A stretch of 20,164 bases of DNA from a virus: the IMG/VR virus record IMGVR_UViG_3300045421_000292, positions 1 through 20,164 of that record; one strand, 5' to 3'. Positions 157-10,102 of the stretch are shown here, piece after piece. How positions within the stretch are numbered: position 1 is the first letter of the stretch; the number at the start of each line of letters is the position of its first letter. The notes below the pieces were generated by a model. The model saw only the letters and a program-made list of their open reading frames with translations, was not told where the DNA came from and made no database searches. The position numbers were made by a program, and so were the translations under genes.

Positions 157-381
157 ATGCGCGGCAGCGATACCCGGACCGGTCCGATCGAGATCCTGGC
201 GCAGCAGCTGCGGCCCGGCGACCGGTTTCAGCACGACGGCGCGGCGTGGTTCGCGGTGTATGTTGCGGTGACGCATGGCGGGCCGGTTGCCGTGCGGGCG
301 CAGGCGACAGCCGGCAATACGATCCTGTCGGCGCAGACTGAGATGACGCTGGCAGGGGATGAGATCGTGAGGTTGCGATGA
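157..381 (+). CDS. Small hypothetical phage protein, 74 aa
   Basis: This frame encodes a compact 74-residue protein with a beta-rich look: LRPGDRF, then a Trp-Phe-Ala-Val-Tyr strand, then further hydrophobic strands and a DEIVRLR end. I chose ATG 157 over an upstream ATG at 97 because GGAG at 145-148 sits eight bases before it and because the upstream start would overlap the preceding gene. No family is recognised; small beta-barrel proteins of this kind are common in phage early operons. Its stop (TGA 379-381) lies in the first copy of a 25-base tandem duplication whose second copy supplies the start of the TnpB-like gene, so the two genes were probably once directly coupled. Confidence 0.6.
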   Translation: MRGSDTRTGPIEILAQQLRPGDRFQHDGAAWFAVYVAVTHGGPVAVRAQATAGNTILSAQTEMTLAGDEIVRLR

Positions 382-407
382 GGATGAGATCGTGAGGCTG
401 CGATGAG
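357..407 (+). repeat. 25-base tandem duplication at the gene junction before the TnpB-like gene
   Basis: Bases 357-382 and 382-407 are the same sequence (starting GGATGAGATCGTGAGG) with one difference, T374 versus C399. The first copy contains the stop of the 74-aa gene; the second contains the GAGG ribosome-binding site (394-397) and the ATG (403) of the TnpB-like gene. At the matching place in the first copy there is an ATGA (378-381) in which the TGA is the upstream stop. Without the duplication the two genes would overlap by this ATGA. Confidence 0.9.
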
Positions 408-1836
408 TGATACCGAAGCCGAGATTGTGCGGCGCTACAACTTCAAGCTTTATCCGACGCACGCTCAGGCCGCGGCGCTGGATCGCATCCGCCGCCTGCA
501 CGCGACGTTCTACAACGCGGCGCTTCAGGAGCGGATCGACGCCTACCGGCTGGCGGGGAAGACGCTGACGCAATACGACCAGAGCAAACACATAAAGGTC
601 GTACGGGCCGACGATCCGGACTATGCGGCGCTGTCGGCTGACAGTCTCAACGGCACGCTCGCGCGTCTGGATAGGGCCTTTCAGGCGTTCTTTCGCCGCG
701 CCCGGGCCGGCCAGGGCGCGCAATCCGGCTTTCCGCGTTACAAGCGCAGCGACGACTACCCGGGTTTCTGGCATCGGTGGAAGAACGGATGGGCGATGAC
801 GCTTGGCCCTTCCGGCAAATCGGGGCGGATGTATGTCAAGGGAGTTCCGGGTGAACTGACCTTCCGCGGGCGGTTTCCGGCGCCACCCACCAGAATTCTG
901 ACTTGCGACATCCGCCTTGAAGGCGGCGTCTGGTGGGCGTCGGTAGCGGTCCGCATAGCGGCGCGCATGCGCCAGGACCACGAATATAAGGGCGAGGTCG
1001 TCTTCGACCTTGTCGAGACATTCGCGCGCATAAGGCGCGTGGACCGCGGACACGCCGCGGGGCCGGACGACGCGGGAATTCCCGCGGAAGATGGCCGAAT
1101 CATCCAACCACATCTGGGGGTTGGGGCTGCATCGGGTGCACACACCCCGGAAACCGGGGGTGACCGTGGGGGAAAGCCCCTGCGATCTTCCGCACCGGCC
1201 GGTGCACACACCCCGGAAACGGGGGGGGACCGTGGGAGCGGATGGTCCATGCCGTTCACGGCAACCGGCGCACACACCCAGGAAGCGGGGGGTGACCGTG
1301 GGGCAAAAGGCGAGACGTTGGAGCTGCGACCGGGTGCACACACCCCGGGAACGGGGGGTGACCGTGGGACGACGCCCTACGAGGCCGCGCAACGCGTAGA
1401 GCGCTTGCAACGCAGGATGGCCACATGCAAGCGAGGGTCCCAACGCTACCGGCGCTTGCGCCGACTCAAGGCCAGGATTGAGGCTCGGGCCGCGCGGCAA
1501 CGCAGAGAGCGGCTCCACGTGTGGACGACGGCTATCGCGCGGACGTTCGCCGAACTGACGATCGTGTCGCCTTCAATCAAGGAGACAACCCGGTCGGGTC
1601 GAGGCACTGAGCGCAGCCATGGCGCCGCCGTCGCGGTCAAAGCCGCGCTCAACCGTCACATTTTGGCGATGGCGCCGGCGACCGCGGTTGCGATGTTGGA
1701 ATACAAGATCGCCGAACGCGGAGGGATGGCACAGGTTGTGCGCGCCGGTTCTCATCCCGCCGAACTAGGCAATGCCATCGTTTCAGCCACCCAAGAAAAC
1801 CGCAAGTTGAGGAGAGCAATACGCAATGCACACTGA
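403..1836 (+). CDS. TnpB/Cas12-like (IS605 OrfB family) protein with a CRISPR-like array inside its frame; probably nuclease-dead
   Basis: Residues 1-200 resemble the N-terminal half of TnpB: YNFKLYPTHAQ at the start, a YNAALQERIDAYR helix, ALSADSLNGTLARLDRAFQ, FFRRARAG and a FPRYKR motif. A RuvC-I-like strand follows (VVFDLVETFARI, Asp202). Residues 245-322 are encoded by the array at 1135-1368 and read four times as GAHTPETGGDRG or a near copy. The family pattern resumes at once with YEAAQRVERLQRRMA and KRGSQRYRRLRRLKARIEAR (about 325-370). Without the array the length is 399 aa, normal for TnpB. Where TnpB has the RuvC-II VEDL glutamate, this protein reads IVSPSIKETTRSG (about 387-399). 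The Cys4 zinc finger and the RuvC-III DxNAA motif are absent. Known TnpB proteins are RNA-guided nucleases; loss of catalysis with retention of the fold would leave an RNA-guided DNA binder. It has no transposase A partner or IS ends, and its end overlaps the next gene by 11 bases. Confidence 0.8.
   Translation: MSDTEAEIVRRYNFKLYPTHAQAAALDRIRRLHATFYNAALQERIDAYRLAGKTLTQYDQSKHIKVVRADDPDYAALSADSLNGTLARLDRAFQAFFRRARAGQGAQSGFPRYKRSDDYPGFWHRWKNGWAMTLGPSGKSGRMYVKGVPGELTFRGRFPAPPTRILTCDIRLEGGVWWASVAVRIAARMRQDHEYKGEVVFDLVETFARIRRVDRGHAAGPDDAGIPAEDGRIIQPHLGVGAASGAHTPETGGDRGGKPLRSSAPAGAHTPETGGDRGSGWSMPFTATGAHTQEAGGDRGAKGETLELRPGAHTPGTGGDRGTTPYEAAQRVERLQRRMATCKRGSQRYRRLRRLKARIEARAARQRRERLHVWTTAIARTFAELTIVSPSIKETTRSGRGTERSHGAAVAVKAALNRHILAMAPATAVAMLEYKIAERGGMAQVVRAGSHPAELGNAIVSATQENRKLRRAIRNAH
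1135..1368. CRISPR. Mini CRISPR-like array: four 36-base repeats, three 30-base spacers, inside the TnpB-like frame
   Basis: Repeats lie at 1135-1170, 1201-1236, 1267-1302 and 1333-1368, exactly 66 bases apart. Each starts GGTGCACACACCCCGG (or one to two changes) and ends GGACCGTGGG or TGACCGTGGG. Differences from the consensus are few: one in repeats 1, 2 and 4, three in repeat 3. Spacers are 1171-1200, 1237-1266 and 1303-1332; they are unrelated to each other. Each repeat can fold: CACCCC pairs with GGGGTG, and an outer CAC with GTG. A 36/30 layout is typical of class 2 (types II and V) arrays and fits the TnpB/Cas12-like host gene better than the about 61-base period of type I-E. No AT-rich leader or adaptation genes are visible. 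The array would be transcribed with the operon. Whether it makes guides is inference. Confidence 0.8.
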
Positions 1837-2129: not shown

Positions 2130-2459
2130 ATGTCGGACGAGATGATCCGCCACCTCCCCCCGATCGCCGTATCCCGCGACGAAGCCGCCCAGATGCTAGG
2201 CATCGGCGTCACGAAGTTCGACGAAATGGTCAGCTCAGGTCGCATGCCGGAAGGGCGGCACATCGACACTCGCGTGCTGTGGTCGGTGGAGGAGATCATC
2301 CAGGCCTTCCACGCGCTGCCCAGGCGTGGCCAGATGCGGGGGAATGATCCATGGGCCGACCTGACATGTCCGCGATCGAGCTTCCGTACGTCCAGGCCGT
2401 CCATGCGCGGGGCCAGACCTACTGGTATTTCCGCCACCGCGGGCGCCGGACGCGACTGA
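2130..2459 (+). CDS. Excisionase/AlpA-like helix-turn-helix DNA-binding protein
   Basis: Residues about 10-60 form a MerR/AlpA-type winged helix: AVSRDEAAQMLGIGVTKFDE (recognition unit), then MVSSGRMPEGRHI, then RVLWSVEEIIQAF. This is the usual layout of phage excisionases and regulators that bind near attachment sites. Such proteins bend att DNA and steer the integrase towards excision. The start may be ATG 2130 or ATG 2142; neither has a clear ribosome-binding site. The frame runs 109 bases into the integrase gene, and its last 40 or so residues look less protein-like than the domain. Position directly before the integrase supports an excision or integrase-control role. It could instead be a transcriptional regulator. 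Confidence 0.75.
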   Translation: MSDEMIRHLPPIAVSRDEAAQMLGIGVTKFDEMVSSGRMPEGRHIDTRVLWSVEEIIQAFHALPRRGQMRGNDPWADLTCPRSSFRTSRPSMRGARPTGISATAGAGRD

Positions 2460-3433
2460 CCGGCGCCCCAGGCAGCCCCGAATTCCTGGCGTCCTTCGAG
2501 GCGGCGCGCACCGCCGTCGCGCCGCCCGACACCCGCGCGGCCGCCGGATCGATGGCGGCCCTGGTCGCGTCCTGGCACGCGACCCCGGCCTATCAGGGTC
2601 GCCGATCGTCGACCAAACGATGGGACACGAGGTTGACGGACTGGCTGTGCGAGGCTTGCGGCGATCGCCCCGTCGCCGTCATGGACGCGCGAGCCGTGCG
2701 CACGCTGATGGCCGCGCATACGCCCGCGATGGGTAACAAGGTGCTGTCACTGCTGCGGGTGCTGATCCAGCACGCGATCAGCCTCAACTGGCGAGACGAC
2801 GATCCCACGAGGGATGTGCAGCGGATCGATTATAGACGGCGGCCATTCCCCACCTGGACGGATGATGACCTGGCGGCGTTCGAGCGCCACTGGCCGAGCG
2901 GCAGCCGCGCGCGCCTGGCTTATGCCCTGCTGTTGCATACCGGTCAGCGCCGCGGCGACGTGATCCGAATGGGCTGGCAGCACATCGCCGGCGGCCGCAT
3001 CACCATCGTGCAAGAGAAGACCGGGGCCCGGATCTCGATCCCTATCCATCCAGGCCTGCAAGCGGAACTCGACGCGACGGACAGAAACAACCTGACGTTG
3101 CTGATGACCGCGACCGGGGCTGGGTTCGCGTCCGGGAACGCGTTCTACAACTGGTTCCGGGATTGCATCCGCGCGGCTGGCATCGCGGGGAAGTCCCCGC
3201 ATGGCATGCGCAAGGCGACCGCGCGCCGTCTGATCGAGGCGGGATGCACGCCGCATGAGGCGGCCGCCGTCTCTGGCCATCGCAGCCTCGGCGAGCTGAT
3301 ACACTACGCGAGGGAGGCCGATCAGGCCCGCCTGGCGGATGTCGCGATCGGGAAAATTGCGGCCGCCGACCGGGGCGGCGCGCGGGGTGTGGCAAACATT
3401 TCCGGGAAAAGTGGCAAACTACGAAAAAGATAG
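2351..3433 (+). CDS. int: Tyrosine recombinase, phage integrase
   Basis: This 360-aa protein catalyses site-specific recombination between attP and a chromosomal attB. The catalytic set is visible: Arg200 (GQRRGDVIRM), Lys223 (QEKTGARI), His284 and Arg287 (SPHGMRK), His310 (SGHRSLGE) and the nucleophile Tyr319 (IHYARE). Residues 1-60 contain an arm-binding-like start (QAVHARGQTYWYFRHRGRRT); a SAM-like core-binding domain spans about 65-160. ATG 2351 has GGGGGA at 2338-2343 seven bases upstream; ATG 2366 is an alternative start. It overlaps the excisionase-like gene by 109 bases, which suggests coupled expression. The 3' end contains two of the four arm-type repeats, and attP lies 28 bases past its stop. 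Its length is normal for the family. Confidence 0.95.
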   Translation: MGRPDMSAIELPYVQAVHARGQTYWYFRHRGRRTRLTGAPGSPEFLASFEAARTAVAPPDTRAAAGSMAALVASWHATPAYQGRRSSTKRWDTRLTDWLCEACGDRPVAVMDARAVRTLMAAHTPAMGNKVLSLLRVLIQHAISLNWRDDDPTRDVQRIDYRRRPFPTWTDDDLAAFERHWPSGSRARLAYALLLHTGQRRGDVIRMGWQHIAGGRITIVQEKTGARISIPIHPGLQAELDATDRNNLTLLMTATGAGFASGNAFYNWFRDCIRAAGIAGKSPHGMRKATARRLIEAGCTPHEAAAVSGHRSLGELIHYAREADQARLADVAIGKIAAADRGGARGVANISGKSGKLRKR

Positions 3434-3977: not shown

Positions 3978-4853
3978 TTACGTCGGCGCGTCGATCGTGA
4001 CGATGGCGCTGGGCAGCACCTTGGCGCGGCCTGCCTCGACCTCGGCGCAGCGGTAGACGAAGTTTCGGACGGCGGCCGCGACGCGCAAGAACGCCGCGCC
4101 TGCGGTGAAGGTCACTACGCCGTCGTGCACGGAATAGTTGAACGCATCGCCGCCGCCCGGGAAACCCAATCCAGCCGCGATGCCCGCCCCGATGCTGGTC
4201 ATCGCGTTCAGCGCGTCGACCGACGTCGGATAGGTCCCGTTGGGCGCCCCAGCGCCAGTCACCGTCAGGCCGCCGATCTTCAGTGCGCGGGCTTGCTGCG
4301 CCAGCGTCAAGGTCCGATCGACGGCAATTGGGTTGCCGTCCATATCGGGAACGATCTCCTTGCCGTCGGCCTGCGCGGCCATCAGGGCCGCATGCTGCTC
4401 GCGAGTGACCTCGACTAGCGATCCCGGGAGGTCGTAGGGATGGAACGTCAGGTCATAGAAGCCGCGCGTCTCTTGCGAGTAGAAGATCGGAATGTTGACC
4501 CCGGCATAGGCGCCATTCTCGAGCACGATGCGCCCGTGCCGGCCCAGCGCGTGCTGGACATACTCCACCTGGTCCGGCGGAATTGCGACATGCAGCGCCG
4601 GCGGCGCCTCACCCGCTTCCAGCTCCACAACCACCAGGCGGAACTCTGTCAGTGCGTAGAACACGCGCGGTACGACCGGCTTGATCCCCCCGCCCTCCAG
4701 GACGAGGACGCGGCCGCCGGCGGCGATCGCCGCCTCGCACGCGGCGATCTGCTCATCGGGCACGACAGCACAACCGTCTGGCACGGGCTCGTCATCGGCC
4801 ACGGCCTGGACCTCGAGGCGGTTGGCCTCGAGCGAGTAGATATGTCTGATCAT
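3978..4853 (-). CDS. Tail-fibre accessory protein, DUF4376-like C-terminus
   Basis: This 291-aa protein has three visible parts. Residues 1-110 contain repeated acidic/hydrophobic segments (EVQAVADDEPVPDG, VVELEAGEAPPALHV). Residues about 150-185 carry a pattern common in tail-fibre assembly proteins (VTREQHAALMAAQADGKEIV then a DGNP motif). The end, from about 210, resembles DUF4376 domains (YPTSVDALNAMTSIGAGIAA, then VVTFTAGAAFLRVAAAVRNF). Proteins with this layout usually lie just after the fibre gene and are thought to help fibre folding or attachment. Its ATG overlaps the stop of the upstream fibre by one base (TGATG). Function is by family resemblance only. Confidence 0.65.
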   Translation of the reverse strand: MIRHIYSLEANRLEVQAVADDEPVPDGCAVVPDEQIAACEAAIAAGGRVLVLEGGGIKPVVPRVFYALTEFRLVVVELEAGEAPPALHVAIPPDQVEYVQHALGRHGRIVLENGAYAGVNIPIFYSQETRGFYDLTFHPYDLPGSLVEVTREQHAALMAAQADGKEIVPDMDGNPIAVDRTLTLAQQARALKIGGLTVTGAGAPNGTYPTSVDALNAMTSIGAGIAAGLGFPGGGDAFNYSVHDGVVTFTAGAAFLRVAAAVRNFVYRCAEVEAGRAKVLPSAIVTIDAPT

Positions 4854-5791
4854 CAGTGCCCCAGAGCTCTAGCGAATATGTTGACGGTCGACGACGCTTG
4901 GTTGTCGACTCCGACCTGGGTCGTGGTTGGCGTGCCCACGACGAGGTGGCCGTTCGGGGTGCCGGACGCAAAGCTGCACACGACGTTGCGACATTGGGAA
5001 GGGAAAGCGGTTGCGAATGTCCAGGTTGTCACACCCGTCGGGGCGGCGAAGAAATGCCACTGATCTATCACCCCGCCTGGCACCTTCTGATACCCGTTCA
5101 CCCCAAGCAGTTGGTTGGAGCCGGTGAATTCGCCCCGCAAAAAAGCCGTCGTGGCGATCTTCGTGCTGTTGTCGCCGCCGCTTGGGGTTGGGGCTGTCGG
5201 CGTACCGGTGAGCGCCGGCGATGCCAGTGGCGCCTTGCCTGCAATCTCACCCTGGACGAACGCGGTGGTTGCGATCCGTGTCGAATTATCGGCTGCGCTT
5301 GGCGTCGTGGACGCCGGCACCCCCGTGAAGGTGGGCGAGTTCACGGCAGCTTTCGCCGCCAGTTCCGTCTGCACCCACGCTGTCGTGGGGACAAAGGTCG
5401 AGTTGTCGCCGCCGCTCGGGGCGGTCGTGCGCAGATAACCGGTCGTGTCGTAGCTCGGCAGGTTCTGCGACAGTGGGACCAGGAAGATGTACTTCGTGCC
5501 ACTCGCCCAGGATAGGAACGCCGCCGTGCCGTCGGTGCGTCCCCTCGCGGTGACGCGCGAGAGCGTCGCCGGCGACCCAGTCGTGAAAACGCCCTCTCCC
5601 ATTTCAAAGTTCGTCGGCGAAGTGAGGCTGTCGAGCGCGATATAGGACACGCGCGATCCTGTCGTGATGCCGGCGGTGGCGAACGAATAATACAGCGTCC
5701 CACCCGGCGCCCCGCCAAGCTGATAGGTGCTGGTCCCGGTCGTCGTTGTCGTCTCGCACGCCCGGTTGGCAAATTTTACCTCGGTGCCCAT
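4853..5791 (-). CDS. Tail fibre protein with TAFV-type repeats
   Basis: This 312-aa fibre protein starts with a module of about 115 residues found in many phage fibres (CETTTTTGTSTY, FEMGEGVFT, ATLSRV, GTKYIFLVPL). About three copies follow of a repeat of roughly 35 residues ending GDNST, then IATTAFVQGE or a variant (about 125-225), typical of trimeric fibre shafts. The C-terminal 75 residues (GGVIDQWHFFA, FPSQCRNVVC, ending NIFARALGH) resemble the gp53-like C-terminal fibre domain. It probably binds the host surface at the tail tip. Its N-terminal module matches that of the 1187-aa fibre, so both probably attach to the same part of the virion. It starts one base after the upstream gene's stop (TAG 5795-5793). 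Confidence 0.8.
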   Translation of the reverse strand: MGTEVKFANRACETTTTTGTSTYQLGGAPGGTLYYSFATAGITTGSRVSYIALDSLTSPTNFEMGEGVFTTGSPATLSRVTARGRTDGTAAFLSWASGTKYIFLVPLSQNLPSYDTTGYLRTTAPSGGDNSTFVPTTAWVQTELAAKAAVNSPTFTGVPASTTPSAADNSTRIATTAFVQGEIAGKAPLASPALTGTPTAPTPSGGDNSTKIATTAFLRGEFTGSNQLLGVNGYQKVPGGVIDQWHFFAAPTGVTTWTFATAFPSQCRNVVCSFASGTPNGHLVVGTPTTTQVGVDNQASSTVNIFARALGH

Positions 5792-5792
5792 G

Positions 5793-6542
5793 CTACACTC
5801 CCGTGATGCCGCGCAGCTCGAGCAGGCTGCGCACGGACGCCATCGCGTCCGACTGGATCGCGGCCCGGGTCATCTGCTGACCCGACACGACGCCTACGAA
5901 CGCGATGTCCGATCCCTGCGTGCCAGTCGCCGTCGCCGCGCTGGTGCCGATGTGGAAGTAGTTCGCGGAACCTGCGTTAGACGACTGACCAGCAGCCGAG
6001 AGCGTTGCCTCCGCGTCGGCAGTCAGGTCCATGATGCGGCACGTCCCCGCCACGCCGCCGGCAGGCTCGGTCAGCGCCCACGCCCGCCAAGACCGGACCG
6101 TCGGCACAGCCAGCGTTGGGCCTTGCACGGACAGACGGATCGAAAACACGGTCGGCGCGTTGTCATTGGCCACGTCCACCTCTTTCGTGCGGATATGCAG
6201 CCGGACGTCGCCAGCAATCGGATGCGCCTCACCGATCATTCCCACCGAGGTCGAGCGACCGACCACGATGATGGTGATCGGCGCGTCCCCGCCATCGGCG
6301 TAGCGCTGCCAGTCGAGCCGCAGCGCGCCGTCGTAGCGACACGACACATGGTTTGACCGGATCGCCAGCGGTCCGGCCCCGACATTGACGATCGCTGGAC
6401 CACCAGGCACGAGGTTGGTGCCGTCGGATGACCAGGTCGAGCCGAAAAACGCCCAGGCGACCAGCCCGGAGATCAGTGGCTGGCTGATCGCCACAGGATC
6501 GACCGGCGTGATGCCTGACAGGATCAGCTCGGAGCCGCTCAT
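5793..6542 (-). CDS. LamG/concanavalin-like tail-associated protein
   Basis: This 249-aa protein is beta-rich with no signal peptide or membrane segment. After a short N-terminus (GITPVDPVAISQ), a jelly-roll-like pattern runs from about residue 28: LVAWAFFGSTW, ITIIVVGRST, VFSIRLSV, SWRAWALTEP and DIAFVGVVSG. Short helices close it (RAAIQSDAMASVRSLLELRG). In phages, LamG-like domains in this position usually decorate the tail tip and bind sugars. It overlaps the upstream fibre by four bases (ATGA) and precedes the second fibre. The fold assignment is by pattern, not by a specific motif. Confidence 0.6.
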   Translation of the reverse strand: MSGSELILSGITPVDPVAISQPLISGLVAWAFFGSTWSSDGTNLVPGGPAIVNVGAGPLAIRSNHVSCRYDGALRLDWQRYADGGDAPITIIVVGRSTSVGMIGEAHPIAGDVRLHIRTKEVDVANDNAPTVFSIRLSVQGPTLAVPTVRSWRAWALTEPAGGVAGTCRIMDLTADAEATLSAAGQSSNAGSANYFHIGTSAATATGTQGSDIAFVGVVSGQQMTRAAIQSDAMASVRSLLELRGITGV

Positions 6543-9500
6543 GCCGCGAAATCCTGCGCCTCGAGCGTCGGTTGGATGACGTAATGGGCGAACACACCCC
6601 CCGGATGAGGCCCGTCACCGCCGTGGAGCGAGGTGTTCTTTTCATCCTCGGACGTGGCCAGATCGTCCTGGGCGCCACGCAGAAATCGCTGGGTCCCCGG
6701 CCGGCTATACAGCCCGACCGTATCGTCATCGACCCATAGGTTGTCCACGGCGACGGTCAGGCCCGCGCCACTACACTCGATCACCGGCAGGTATGGCCCG
6801 CCGAACCGCAACACCATGGCGTCGATCACGGCTGGCACCTCGGCCGGCCGGCCGTCAACGTCGTTCCGGATCGATCCGAGGCAGTAGCGGACGAGCAGGT
6901 GGGTGCCGTTGACCGAGATCTCGATGTAGGGATCGGCGCCCGCATCGCCGGCCGCGTTGAAGGCGGACGCCGTCGTTGGCACGCTTTCGTGTCCAAGGAA
7001 AACCGTGCCGGCGGCGCTGCTTAGCGGCCCGTGCGGCCAGGCCGCGGTCAAGGTGCATTGGGTCCGGCTGGATGCACTAGAAACCGTGGTCTGATGGCTG
7101 TTGCCGCCGCTCACGATTCGGATGTCCGCCTTGGAATTCCCATCGTGGGCCAGGAACATCATGCCGCCGATGTAGACCGTGGCGTTTGCGTCGAAGTCGC
7201 CGCCGTCCCACGCCCCGTAATCGTGCACCCTGGCCATCGAATCAGTGCCGGTTATGGCCTTTTCGATGAATGTGCGCTGGGGCTGGGCGTCATAGTCGCC
7301 GCTCGGCAGCCACAGGCACTTGCCGTTATGGCCGCTATTGAGCGGCCCACTGCCCTCGGCGCCGATCTGAATCGAGGACCTGGCGTTGGCCCAGTAGACA
7401 TCCGCCGTAAACGCGGACTGACCTGTCGATTGGAGGGTGGCGCCGCTCGTTGTGAGCGTGCTGGCAACGGTCGCTCCCCATGTCTGTATCCGGTAGGTCA
7501 GAAGCCCCGATCCATTGGTCGAGAGCTCGAGGACATTGTCCGGTCGTTGCGACAGCCGCACGCGGAGCGTACCGATCGCCGCCCAGACCGCCGCGCCGCT
7601 GACACCGGTCAGGACGATCCGTGCACGCCAGGACCTGGTGTCGGCCGGAATGACCAGCGGCGAGCTGGGTGATAGGACGTGCGAGAACGCCGGGATGCGC
7701 CGCCGGATGGGCCGGGTGGGGTCGAACCCCCACAGCGACGCCATGGACGGCCCCTCGTAGTCGATCAGCCCGTAGCCGTACCGGACATGCAGGCCGCGGT
7801 AGAACCCGCACGCGCCCTCCTGCATCCGCTCCGACTGAAACAGCTTCGGCTTGTATGACACCGCGTTGTGCGGCGATCCCTCGAGCAGAATGTCCGGCGA
7901 CTGACCGCCGCGGGTGACCAGGGATCGCATCCGCTTGATCGCGCTGAACACATGGATCGGGTGAAACGACAGCTGGTCGTTGATGGCGTGATGCGCCAAC
8001 GCCAGCACATCGGGCACCGGCGACGCGCCGAGCGCGTAGGATATCCACGACGCGGTGGTGTTGGTGTACCACGGATACTTTTCATTGACGCTGGCGCGTG
8101 TCGCGCCATCACAGGCCTGCTCGGCCCAGGTCGCGCCGCCCATGGCGCGCGGCAGGATCGTGATGGCCCGGTCGAAATTGGGCGCCAGCAGCGCGCCATG
8201 GAACAGCGTCGCCGGCGTGCCGGCCTGGTCCTGCCGGCTCGGGTCGTAAGTGCCGACGCTGTCACCCATGATCATCACGATCGGGGCCGCCTGGGTGCTG
8301 AACGCCGCCAACGTCTTAGGGCCATGCACATGCCGCGGCGCCCGCGGGATCGGCGGTGCGTCGGCGGGGACCAGGCGCAAATAAGAGGCATCCCCCGAAG
8401 AGGTGAAGAAGACGCCTCGGGCCCGTCCGGTCTGCCAGACCGCGTCCAGCATCGCCGGCTGCTGCTGGTTGCCTTCGCCGATCGTGTTGTCGATCGCCAC
8501 GATTCCGCCCTGGGGGCCATATTCGGAGGACCCGCCGCGCAGCCGGAACGCGCAATAGATCCCGGCGCCCGGGAACCACAGGATGCCTTTTTGCTCGGCC
8601 GCCATCGCGTTGCCGGCATCTGAGATTGCCTGGGTATTGTCAGTCCCCCAGGTCATGCGCCGCACCGCGGCGGTGGCGGTGCCGGGGAGGTTGCGGTCCA
8701 GCGTCACGCTGAACGGCGAGACGTAGGCGCTGACGAACGCCAGGAACGGCTGGATCGCGACGTCGGTGTCATCCCGGTACTGGGTCAGCGTCGGACCGGC
8801 TGTCCGTATCCAATAGCCGCGCCCCATTGCGGCCTCGAGCCGAAAGGTCATGCCGGAGCTGCTTGTTGTGAAGCACGGCCACATCACGCTCTTTGTGGCG
8901 GCCGAAACGGTTGTGCTGGCTGCGTCCGCCAGCTCGACCACCGAGCCGTTCTTTACCTTGGCGATCGTGGTGATAAGGATACCGCCGGCGACGCCGGCGC
9001 CTTCGACGGCGATCGGCCAGCCTTCGTTTCTCCCGCGCTGGAACGCAACGCCCGACAGCTCGGTCAGGTCGATCGACAGCTCCCGCGATCCGCTGGCGAT
9101 CGTCACGGCGCCGCGGAACGTATAGGCGCTCAGAGTAGCGGAGGACGCCGACCAGGTCAGATAGAACCATTCGTCCGACCCGTCGCCGACGGCGCCGGAG
9201 CGCGTGACGTCGTAGGCGTGCTCTGGCATTCCCGGCGTGGTGGCTGATCCGGGCGATGCGACCTCACCGCGCATCGTGATGTCACCGGCGACCACCACAT
9301 CCCGGAAAAACCATGTGTCATCAACCCAGGCGGCGATGACCTTCCCGTCCGGCGCGCGGATCACATAGGGAAACGGCGACAGCCCGGCCTGGGCCTGGAT
9401 CGTCTGTCCGCCGGCCGACAGAACGGCATACGTTGCGACGGTTCCCGTCACGTCATCGATCACGGCCGTATCGATGGCGGCCGTGGTGGCGGTGACGGTC

Positions 9501-10102
9501 CCGGCGTTCAGAGCGTCGACCGTGGCGCTCGAGAATATCCCCACCGTGCCGGTCACGGTGCCGATCGCGGCCTGGCCGGCCGTCAGAGCGTTGACGTTGA
9601 TGCTGCCGGCCGTCAGCAGCGTCGAGATCGTCACGGTCCCGAAAAGCGTCGGATTGTTCGCCACCGCCAACAGGTCGGTGATGGCCTTCACCCATTGGGT
9701 GGTCGCGACAATCCCGCTATTTTCGCCACCCGGCGGCGTGACGGAATGCAGCATACCGTCGCTGTCGAGCAGGGCGAGCGCGTGTGCCAGCGGCAGGATT
9801 GTGACCCTTTTGGTGCCCGGCGCCAGGTTCAGGAACGTGCCGGACCCGTCATGAGCTTCGACGAAGGCGACACGCGAGAGAGTTGGCGTGCCGCCGCCGT
9901 TGTAGACCCCCTCGCCGTGCTCCCAGAACGCCGCGGGCTCGGCGCCGTCATCGATCCGGTACAGGACGCGCTCGCCGCCCACCAGGCCGGCGCCGGCGGG
10001 GGTCCGGAACCCGGTGGCGGCCGCGCCAACCGAGATCGCGGCCGTTCCAGTGGTAGTCGTTGTGAAGACGCACCGGTCAGCCAGGACGTGTGGCGTTCCC
10101 AT
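6539..10102 (-). CDS. Large tail fibre with SGNH/GDSL hydrolase-like domain
   Basis: This 1187-aa protein is the largest fibre. Residues 1-115 are the same anchoring module as in the 312-aa fibre (TTTTTGT, FWEHGEGVYN, TLSRV, GTKRVTILPL). A Thr/Ala/Val-rich repetitive section (about 150-240) looks like a beta-helical shaft. Near 485-520, NTQAISDAGNAM and GILWFPGAGIYC resemble the start of pectate-lyase-type depolymerase domains. From about 600 comes an SGNH hydrolase-like domain: block I VMIMGDSVGTY (Ser615) and block III AHHAINDQ (Asn708). A clear DxxH block V is not seen; His808 (AFSHVL) is a candidate. The C-terminal third is beta-rich. Known fibre-borne SGNH domains remove acetyl or other esters from surface glycans, so this fibre may modify its receptor. 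It overlaps neighbours by one and four bases. Confidence 0.75.
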   Translation of the reverse strand: MGTPHVLADRCVFTTTTTGTAAISVGAAATGFRTPAGAGLVGGERVLYRIDDGAEPAAFWEHGEGVYNGGGTPTLSRVAFVEAHDGSGTFLNLAPGTKRVTILPLAHALALLDSDGMLHSVTPPGGENSGIVATTQWVKAITDLLAVANNPTLFGTVTISTLLTAGSINVNALTAGQAAIGTVTGTVGIFSSATVDALNAGTVTATTAAIDTAVIDDVTGTVATYAVLSAGGQTIQAQAGLSPFPYVIRAPDGKVIAAWVDDTWFFRDVVVAGDITMRGEVASPGSATTPGMPEHAYDVTRSGAVGDGSDEWFYLTWSASSATLSAYTFRGAVTIASGSRELSIDLTELSGVAFQRGRNEGWPIAVEGAGVAGGILITTIAKVKNGSVVELADAASTTVSAATKSVMWPCFTTSSSGMTFRLEAAMGRGYWIRTAGPTLTQYRDDTDVAIQPFLAFVSAYVSPFSVTLDRNLPGTATAAVRRMTWGTDNTQAISDAGNAMAAEQKGILWFPGAGIYCAFRLRGGSSEYGPQGGIVAIDNTIGEGNQQQPAMLDAVWQTGRARGVFFTSSGDASYLRLVPADAPPIPRAPRHVHGPKTLAAFSTQAAPIVMIMGDSVGTYDPSRQDQAGTPATLFHGALLAPNFDRAITILPRAMGGATWAEQACDGATRASVNEKYPWYTNTTASWISYALGASPVPDVLALAHHAINDQLSFHPIHVFSAIKRMRSLVTRGGQSPDILLEGSPHNAVSYKPKLFQSERMQEGACGFYRGLHVRYGYGLIDYEGPSMASLWGFDPTRPIRRRIPAFSHVLSPSSPLVIPADTRSWRARIVLTGVSGAAVWAAIGTLRVRLSQRPDNVLELSTNGSGLLTYRIQTWGATVASTLTTSGATLQSTGQSAFTADVYWANARSSIQIGAEGSGPLNSGHNGKCLWLPSGDYDAQPQRTFIEKAITGTDSMARVHDYGAWDGGDFDANATVYIGGMMFLAHDGNSKADIRIVSGGNSHQTTVSSASSRTQCTLTAAWPHGPLSSAAGTVFLGHESVPTTASAFNAAGDAGADPYIEISVNGTHLLVRYCLGSIRNDVDGRPAEVPAVIDAMVLRFGGPYLPVIECSGAGLTVAVDNLWVDDDTVGLYSRPGTQRFLRGAQDDLATSEDEKNTSLHGGDGPHPGGVFAHYVIQPTLEAQDFAA

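What the first reader, a model, noticed from the sequence alone, without database searches (positions are those of the whole stretch)
403..1836. TnpB-like protein that appears to have lost its nuclease centre
A RuvC-I-like Asp202 remains, but the sequence at the RuvC-II site (IVSPSIKETTRSG) has no glutamate in the expected place. The zinc finger and RuvC-III Asp are missing although the length without the array is normal. Exapted nuclease-dead TnpB proteins and dead Cas12 variants act as RNA-guided repressors. This one may silence a competing phage, a plasmid or a host gene.
Basis: partly seen in the sequence, partly recalled or inferred. Interest (0 to 1): 0.8.

Follow-up and report, generated by a model that had tools for sequence, protein, structure and literature searches.

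The report
Phage dead TnpB with embedded CRISPR array
A bacterial virus carries a relative of the RNA-guided DNA cutter TnpB that has lost its cutting centre but kept its RNA- and DNA-binding half, and a small CRISPR-like array sits inside the same gene; it may be a self-guided DNA-binding repressor, or a gene in decay that happens to hold a CRISPR array.

Summary
ORF 403-1836 (+) encodes a TnpB-fold protein (best solved match ISDra2 TnpB, Z 25.0, rmsd 3.1, 316 residues). RuvC-I Asp202 is present, but the glycine after it is deleted. The invariant RuvC-II Glu is Val388. The zinc finger and RuvC-III Asp are gone, so RuvC nuclease activity is very unlikely. More unusual is what lies inside the gene: four 36-nt repeats with three unrelated 30-nt spacers at an exact 66-nt period (1135-1368), in frame, between RuvC-I and the following long helices. 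Kin lack it.

The protein belongs to a 100/100-supported clade of proteobacterial IS200/IS605 TnpBs. Its N-terminal half keeps 31/35 conserved positions, its RuvC half only 19/36 (p = 0.0015). This fits exaptation as an RNA-guided DNA-binding protein (TldR-like or Cas12m-like). It does not exclude a tnpB that is decaying from its 3' half. Intact tnpB genes with CRISPR arrays just downstream occur in two other viral lineages (L016, L071).

No spacer target, scaffold RNA, host repeat or second copy of this architecture was found. In-frame read-through alone is weak evidence. Verdict: nuclease-dead supported; RNA-guided silencing plausible, unproven; new variant of a known kind.

The parts
403..1836 (+). 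TnpB-like ORF, 477 aa, RuvC centre lost
430..987 (+). N-terminal half (residues 10-195): the WED/REC part that binds guide RNA and target in TnpB; 31/35 conserved positions kept
   Evidence: (pLDDT mostly above 90); role from knowledge of TnpB structures
1006..1008 (+). Codon of Asp202, the RuvC-I Asp; the Gly that follows two residues later in kin is deleted
1135..1368 (+). CRISPR-like array inside the ORF: repeats 1135-1170, 1201-1236, 1267-1302, 1333-1368; spacers 1171-1200, 1237-1266, 1303-1332
1375..1545 (+). Long helices (residues 325-381) that follow RuvC-I in TnpB; homology resumes within a few codons of the last repeat
1564..1566 (+). Codon of Val388, in place of the RuvC-II Glu
1726..1836 (+). 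C-terminal tail (residues 442-477) where kin have the zinc finger and RuvC-III Asp; none kept
357..406 (+). 25-bp tandem duplication (357-381, 382-406, 96% identical) at the junction of the upstream 94-aa ORF and the tnpB-like start codon
1826..2032 (+). 68-aa ORF whose ATG overlaps the end of the tnpB-like ORF; GAGGAG nine bases upstream

Best explanation
A tnpB gene of the proteobacterial IS200/IS605 type was captured by a temperate phage, lost two of its three RuvC acidic residues and its zinc finger, and was kept for RNA-guided DNA binding without cutting (sequence losses and N-half retention shown; binding inferred). The CRISPR-like array inside the gene is transcribed with it and supplies guides: repeat-spacer RNAs are excised and loaded by the retained N-terminal half (inferred). 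The complex would sit on matching DNA and block transcription, as TldR and Cas12m2 do (inferred by analogy). Each transcript could be either translated or cut into guides (inferred).
For: TnpB fold, with a confident N half. RuvC-II Glu, RuvC-III Asp and zinc finger lost while the N half keeps 31/35 clade-conserved positions against 19/36 in the rest, Fisher p 0.0015. The ORF is open over its whole length and packed in a phage operon. The array has CRISPR geometry and unrelated spacers. Intact viral tnpB genes with adjacent arrays exist in two other lineages; viral TnpBs near arrays are published (PMC12607003). TnpB processes its own mRNA into guide RNA (PMC10278001). Phage TldR repressors (PMC13418256) and Cas12m2 (PMC10442227) show silencing without cutting.
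Against: The array interrupts the coding sequence, has no codon-position bias and would add about 100 disordered residues at the RuvC-I/helix junction. The RuvC half is relaxed beyond the catalytic residues (12/20 at 395-441). Repeats are imperfect and repeat 3 has no stable hairpin. No anti-repeat or scaffold, no spacer target, no relative with this architecture. In-frame openness is not rare by chance here.
Confidence: 0.4

Rival explanations
1. The gene is a tnpB in decay. A CRISPR mini-array, made for another effector (for example a host Cas system) or already orphan, lies in its middle; the frame stays open largely by chance and the protein no longer works.
For: Relaxed RuvC half and lost C-terminus; long branch of 1.82; array stretch without coding signature; chance openness of such an array 59%, and of 112-codon antisense stretches 19%; imperfect repeats. 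Viral mini-arrays that use host Cas systems are known (PMC11656645).
Against: The N half keeps 31/35 conserved positions. Neutral drift of the C part would leave no stop in only 9-28% of simulations, before counting frameshifts. Published mini-arrays have repeats identical to the host's, and this repeat was found in no sampled genome, plasmid or phage.
Confidence: 0.35
2. Only the N-terminal half works, as a DNA- or RNA-binding protein made from 403 to about 1130, or the gene makes two separate chains; the array and the 3' part are non-coding.
For: Constraint is concentrated in the N half. The array and the 129 nt before it lack the usual codon bias.
Against: There is no stop codon between the halves. 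The helices after the array keep 6/8 conserved positions and positions 1381-1560 keep a coding bias.
Confidence: 0.12
3. The 36-nt units are a protein tandem repeat that mimics a CRISPR array.
For: In frame, with a period divisible by 3. CRISPR-like repeats within coding genes such as vlpC of Helicobacter are reported (PMC13209394).
Against: Linkers are unrelated (8-9/30 identical) while the 36-nt units stay 32-34/36 identical, synonymous sites included. The peptide is predicted disordered. Codon bias is absent.
Confidence: 0.06
4. Assembly artefact: metagenomic reads from an array and from a tnpB gene were joined.
For: Single uncultured virus record; arrays are repeat-rich; no second example.
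Against: TnpB homology stops and resumes on either side of the array in the same frame, and both sides belong to the same clade.
Confidence: 0.06

Closest known systems
IS200/IS605 TnpB (ISDra2 TnpB, PDB 8exa)
   Same: Fold over 316 residues (Z 25.0, rmsd 3.1); HTH_OrfB domain; clade of proteobacterial IS200/IS605 TnpBs
   Different: RuvC-II Glu, RuvC-III Asp and zinc finger lost; no tnpA beside it; CRISPR-like array inside the gene
TldR (TnpB-like nuclease-dead repressors), including phage FliC-linked TldR (PMC13418256)
   Same: TnpB descendant in a temperate phage with an inactivated RuvC and a retained N-terminal half
   Different: TldR uses one gRNA encoded in its cassette and conserved partner genes; here there is a three-spacer array inside the gene, no conserved partner and no family of relatives
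Cas12m / type V-M (PMC10442227)
   Same: Small type V effector without cleavage that goes with a CRISPR array; same overall fold (8hhl, Z 13.1, rmsd 4.2, 365 aligned)
   Different: Cas12m2 chains are about 590 residues with an HDD site (PMC10442227); here 477 residues including the array-encoded part, one acidic residue left, array inside the gene
Viral TnpB genes near CRISPR arrays, type V-U-like (PMC12607003; L016 and L071 here)
   Same: tnpB homologue with a short array of 36-37-nt repeats; L016 has the same 66-nt period
   Different: Arrays there lie downstream of an intact nuclease gene; different clades
Virus-borne mini-CRISPR arrays (PMC11656645)
   Same: Small array in a virus genome
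   Different: Repeats there match a host CRISPR and carry one or two spacers; no host match was found here, there are three spacers, and it lies inside a tnpB-like gene

Membership tests
Active TnpB nuclease | TnpB fold with HTH_OrfB N-terminal domain | tested here: met
Active TnpB nuclease | RuvC D-E-D triad | tested here: not met
   Asp202 only; Val388 for Glu; RuvC-III Asp absent
Active TnpB nuclease | C-terminal zinc finger | tested here: not met
   No cysteine pair; two clade members, L002 and L003, also lack it but keep the RuvC-III Asp
TldR | RuvC inactivated, RNA/DNA-binding half retained | tested here: met
   31/35 against 19/36 conserved positions
TldR | Guide RNA encoded beside the gene, with a target in the host or element | tested here: inconclusive
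   No scaffold or anti-repeat found; no target for the array spacers
TldR | Conserved family with a linked partner gene | tested here: inconclusive
   No close relative found, so linkage cannot be judged
TldR | RNA-guided DNA binding and repression | not testable with these tools
   Needs an experiment
Type V CRISPR-Cas (V-U/V-M-like) | Cas12/TnpB-like effector with a CRISPR array at the locus | tested here: met
   Array is inside the ORF; Cas12f/u4/u2 profiles match
Type V CRISPR-Cas (V-U/V-M-like) | Array transcribed and processed into crRNAs bound by the effector | not testable with these tools
   Needs an experiment
CRISPR array | Regularly spaced direct repeats with unrelated spacers of constant length | tested here: met
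   Period 66 nt; spacers 8-9/30 identical
CRISPR array | Near-identical repeats | tested here: inconclusive
   32-34/36 pairwise: high, but every copy differs from the others
CRISPR array | Spacers that match mobile elements | tested here: inconclusive
   No match; collections limited, spacer 3 not scanned in viral contigs
Virus-borne mini-array for host Cas | Repeats identical to a host CRISPR | tested here: inconclusive
   No array with this repeat in genome contigs (20 fixed bases; one chance site in a Streptomyces sequence), plasmids or phages; host unknown

The most novel reading that the evidence does not exclude
A single phage gene encodes both an RNA-guided, non-cutting TnpB descendant and, inside its own open reading frame, the CRISPR array that guides it, so that each transcript serves either as messenger or as guide precursor.
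Probability: 0.2. Interest if true: 0.85.

Novelty: new variant of a known kind. Interest (0 to 1): 0.55.

Why it matters
Dead TnpB repressors and TnpB-array pairs are each known. A dead TnpB with a multi-spacer array embedded in its coding sequence would be an intermediate between transposon TnpB, which makes one guide from its own mRNA, and CRISPR-Cas12, which uses arrays. It would show a compact way for a phage to carry a programmable silencer. If it turns out to be decay, it still shows that an array can lie in a tnpB gene without closing the reading frame.

Tried and rejected
Single-protein search of viral contigs: no close relative. Repeat searches with three patterns: nothing in viral contigs; a fourth gave one chance single site in a Streptomyces genome. 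Spacer matches: array region by blastn to plasmids and phages, 17-nt seeds of spacers 1 and 2 in viral contigs, self-matches; all negative. Anti-repeat or tracrRNA: an apparent 17-nt inverted match between repeat 3 and 1734-1750 was no better than background by duplex energy. Rfam: no match near threshold. A larger 65-sequence alignment misplaced RuvC-I onto the array peptide and was replaced by a 22-sequence one. Chimera of two tnpB genes: both halves prefer the same clade. In-frame read-through as proof of a fusion protein: rejected, because chance openness is high in this GC-rich DNA. No further copy of the array in 20 viral records with TnpB or integrase kin. Relatives of a virus record could not be drawn from the genome set. 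The original TldR paper and the TnpB/Cas12 survey were not held.

Full report
What was checked. The window is a 20,164-base virus record from a temperate phage: tail genes on the minus strand, an integrase at 2351-3433. The tape-measure protein is distantly related to those of Rhodobacter phages, and the nearest tnpB kin lie on proteobacterial plasmids, so an alphaproteobacterial host is likely but inferred. It hits HTH_OrfB_IS605 and guided_TnpB profiles and Cas12f, Cas12u4 and Cas12u2 profiles in PADLOC.

Catalytic centre. In an alignment with 21 viral TnpBs Asp202 falls on the RuvC-I Asp; the Gly that follows two residues later in all kin is deleted. The RuvC-II Glu, invariant in 64 relatives, is Val388. 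The four zinc-finger cysteines and the RuvC-III Asp have no counterpart; from about residue 442 the tail is no longer TnpB-like. AlphaFold2 with this alignment gives pLDDT above 90 for most of residues 10-195, about 70-95 for most of the RuvC core, and below 50 for most of the array-encoded stretch (217-302, 311-320) and the tail 450-477. The model matches ISDra2 TnpB best (8exa, Foldseek E 2.6e-15; Z 25.0, rmsd 3.1, 316 aligned), then other TnpBs, Cas12f, TranC and Cas12m2. A working two-metal RuvC site is therefore very unlikely.

The array. Four 36-nt repeats (consensus GGTGCACACACCCCGGAAACGGGGGGTGACCGTGGG) lie exactly 66 nt apart with three 30-nt spacers. Repeats are 32-34/36 identical; spacers 8-9/30, which is random. 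Three of four repeats form a stable GC hairpin, repeat 3 a weak one, and none folds much better than shuffles (z about -1.2 to -1.5 at best). The array sits between the RuvC-I hairpin and the long helices. TnpB homology resumes within a few codons of the last repeat, and none of the aligned kin has an insertion of this kind there. The stretch has no codon-position bias in G+C (0.71/0.73/0.67), unlike the genes around it (for example 0.66/0.57/0.82 in the integrase). It is open in frame, but this is weak evidence: with the same repeats and random spacers 59% of arrays stay open in that frame, and 19% of 112-codon antisense stretches in this window are open.

Kin and descent. A search with the TnpB alignment gave 80 viral loci. 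A tree of 69 relatives puts the protein in a 100/100 clade with eight TnpBs of IS200/IS605 type from alpha- and betaproteobacterial plasmids and from viruses, on a very long end branch of 1.82. Both halves prefer this clade, so it is one gene and not a chimera. Measured on that clade plus two neighbouring viral TnpBs, conserved positions kept are 31/35 in the N half, 1/2 at RuvC-I, 6/8 in the helices after the array, 0/2 at RuvC-II, 12/20 at 395-441 and 0/4 beyond; N half against the rest, Fisher p 0.0015. Constraint therefore persisted on the RNA- and target-binding half while the nuclease half relaxed. This is the pattern expected of a TldR-like protein. It is also compatible with use of the N half alone, or with decay that began at the 3' end. 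Neutral substitution of the C part would leave no stop in 9-28% of simulations, frameshifts not counted.

TnpB-array pairs elsewhere. Two of the 80 viral loci carry clear CRISPR arrays directly downstream of an intact tnpB: L016 (seven 37-nt repeats, period 66-68) and L071 (eight copies of a 37-nt repeat, period 72-75). They lie in different parts of the tree from the window protein and from each other, so the pairing has probably arisen repeatedly, in line with published viral TnpBs near arrays (PMC12607003). TnpB is known to process its own mRNA into its guide (PMC10278001); phage-borne dead TnpBs act as repressors (PMC13418256); Cas12m2 silences without cutting (PMC10442227). These make an array-guided dead TnpB plausible but do not show it.

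What was not found. No spacer target, no anti-repeat, no known RNA family, no second occurrence of the repeat and no close relative of the protein. Published viral mini-arrays use repeats identical to the host's and carry one or two spacers (PMC11656645); no such host repeat was found here, but the host is unknown.

Local anatomy. The ORF begins in the second copy of a 25-bp tandem duplication of the end of the upstream 94-aa ORF (357-381/382-406), and its stop overlaps the ATG of a 68-aa ORF that has a GAGGAG motif. The gene is thus packed into a phage operon. The duplication may mark how it was inserted (inference).

Verdict. Observation confirmed. Nuclease-dead: supported. RNA-guided repressor: the most likely single reading (0.40), narrowly ahead of decay (0.35). 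The array inside the gene is the unusual part, and the part most in need of an experiment.

Noticed in passing
L016:652-1815 (tnpB) and L016:1918-2354 (array): Viral contig with an intact TnpB gene followed about 100 nt downstream by seven perfect 37-nt CRISPR repeats at 66-68 nt period; no cas1/cas2 looked for. A candidate minimal type V system of a phage.
   Followed up: partly
L071:2977-4449 (tnpB) and L071:4473-5027 (array): Viral contig with an intact TnpB (491 aa, C-terminal extension) followed directly by eight copies of a 37-nt repeat; two neighbouring spacers are identical.
   Followed up: partly
window 357-406: 25-bp tandem duplication (96%) exactly at the junction of the upstream ORF and the tnpB-like start codon, perhaps a scar of insertion.
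   Followed up: no
L002, L003 (plasmid TnpBs of Acidiphilium and Methylorubrum): Members of the same TnpB clade have lost the zinc-finger cysteines but keep the RuvC-III Asp: the finger seems dispensable in this lineage before catalysis is lost.
   Followed up: no
L005, L006 (Acidiphilium plasmids): tnpB genes of the same clade are cut short beside an IS21 istA/istB pair.
   Followed up: no
window 4853-5791 and 6539-10102 (-): Two tail-region proteins begin with a similar domain (CxTTTTTGT ... GEGVxxxGxPxTLSRV), probably a shared attachment domain of tail fibres.
   Followed up: no
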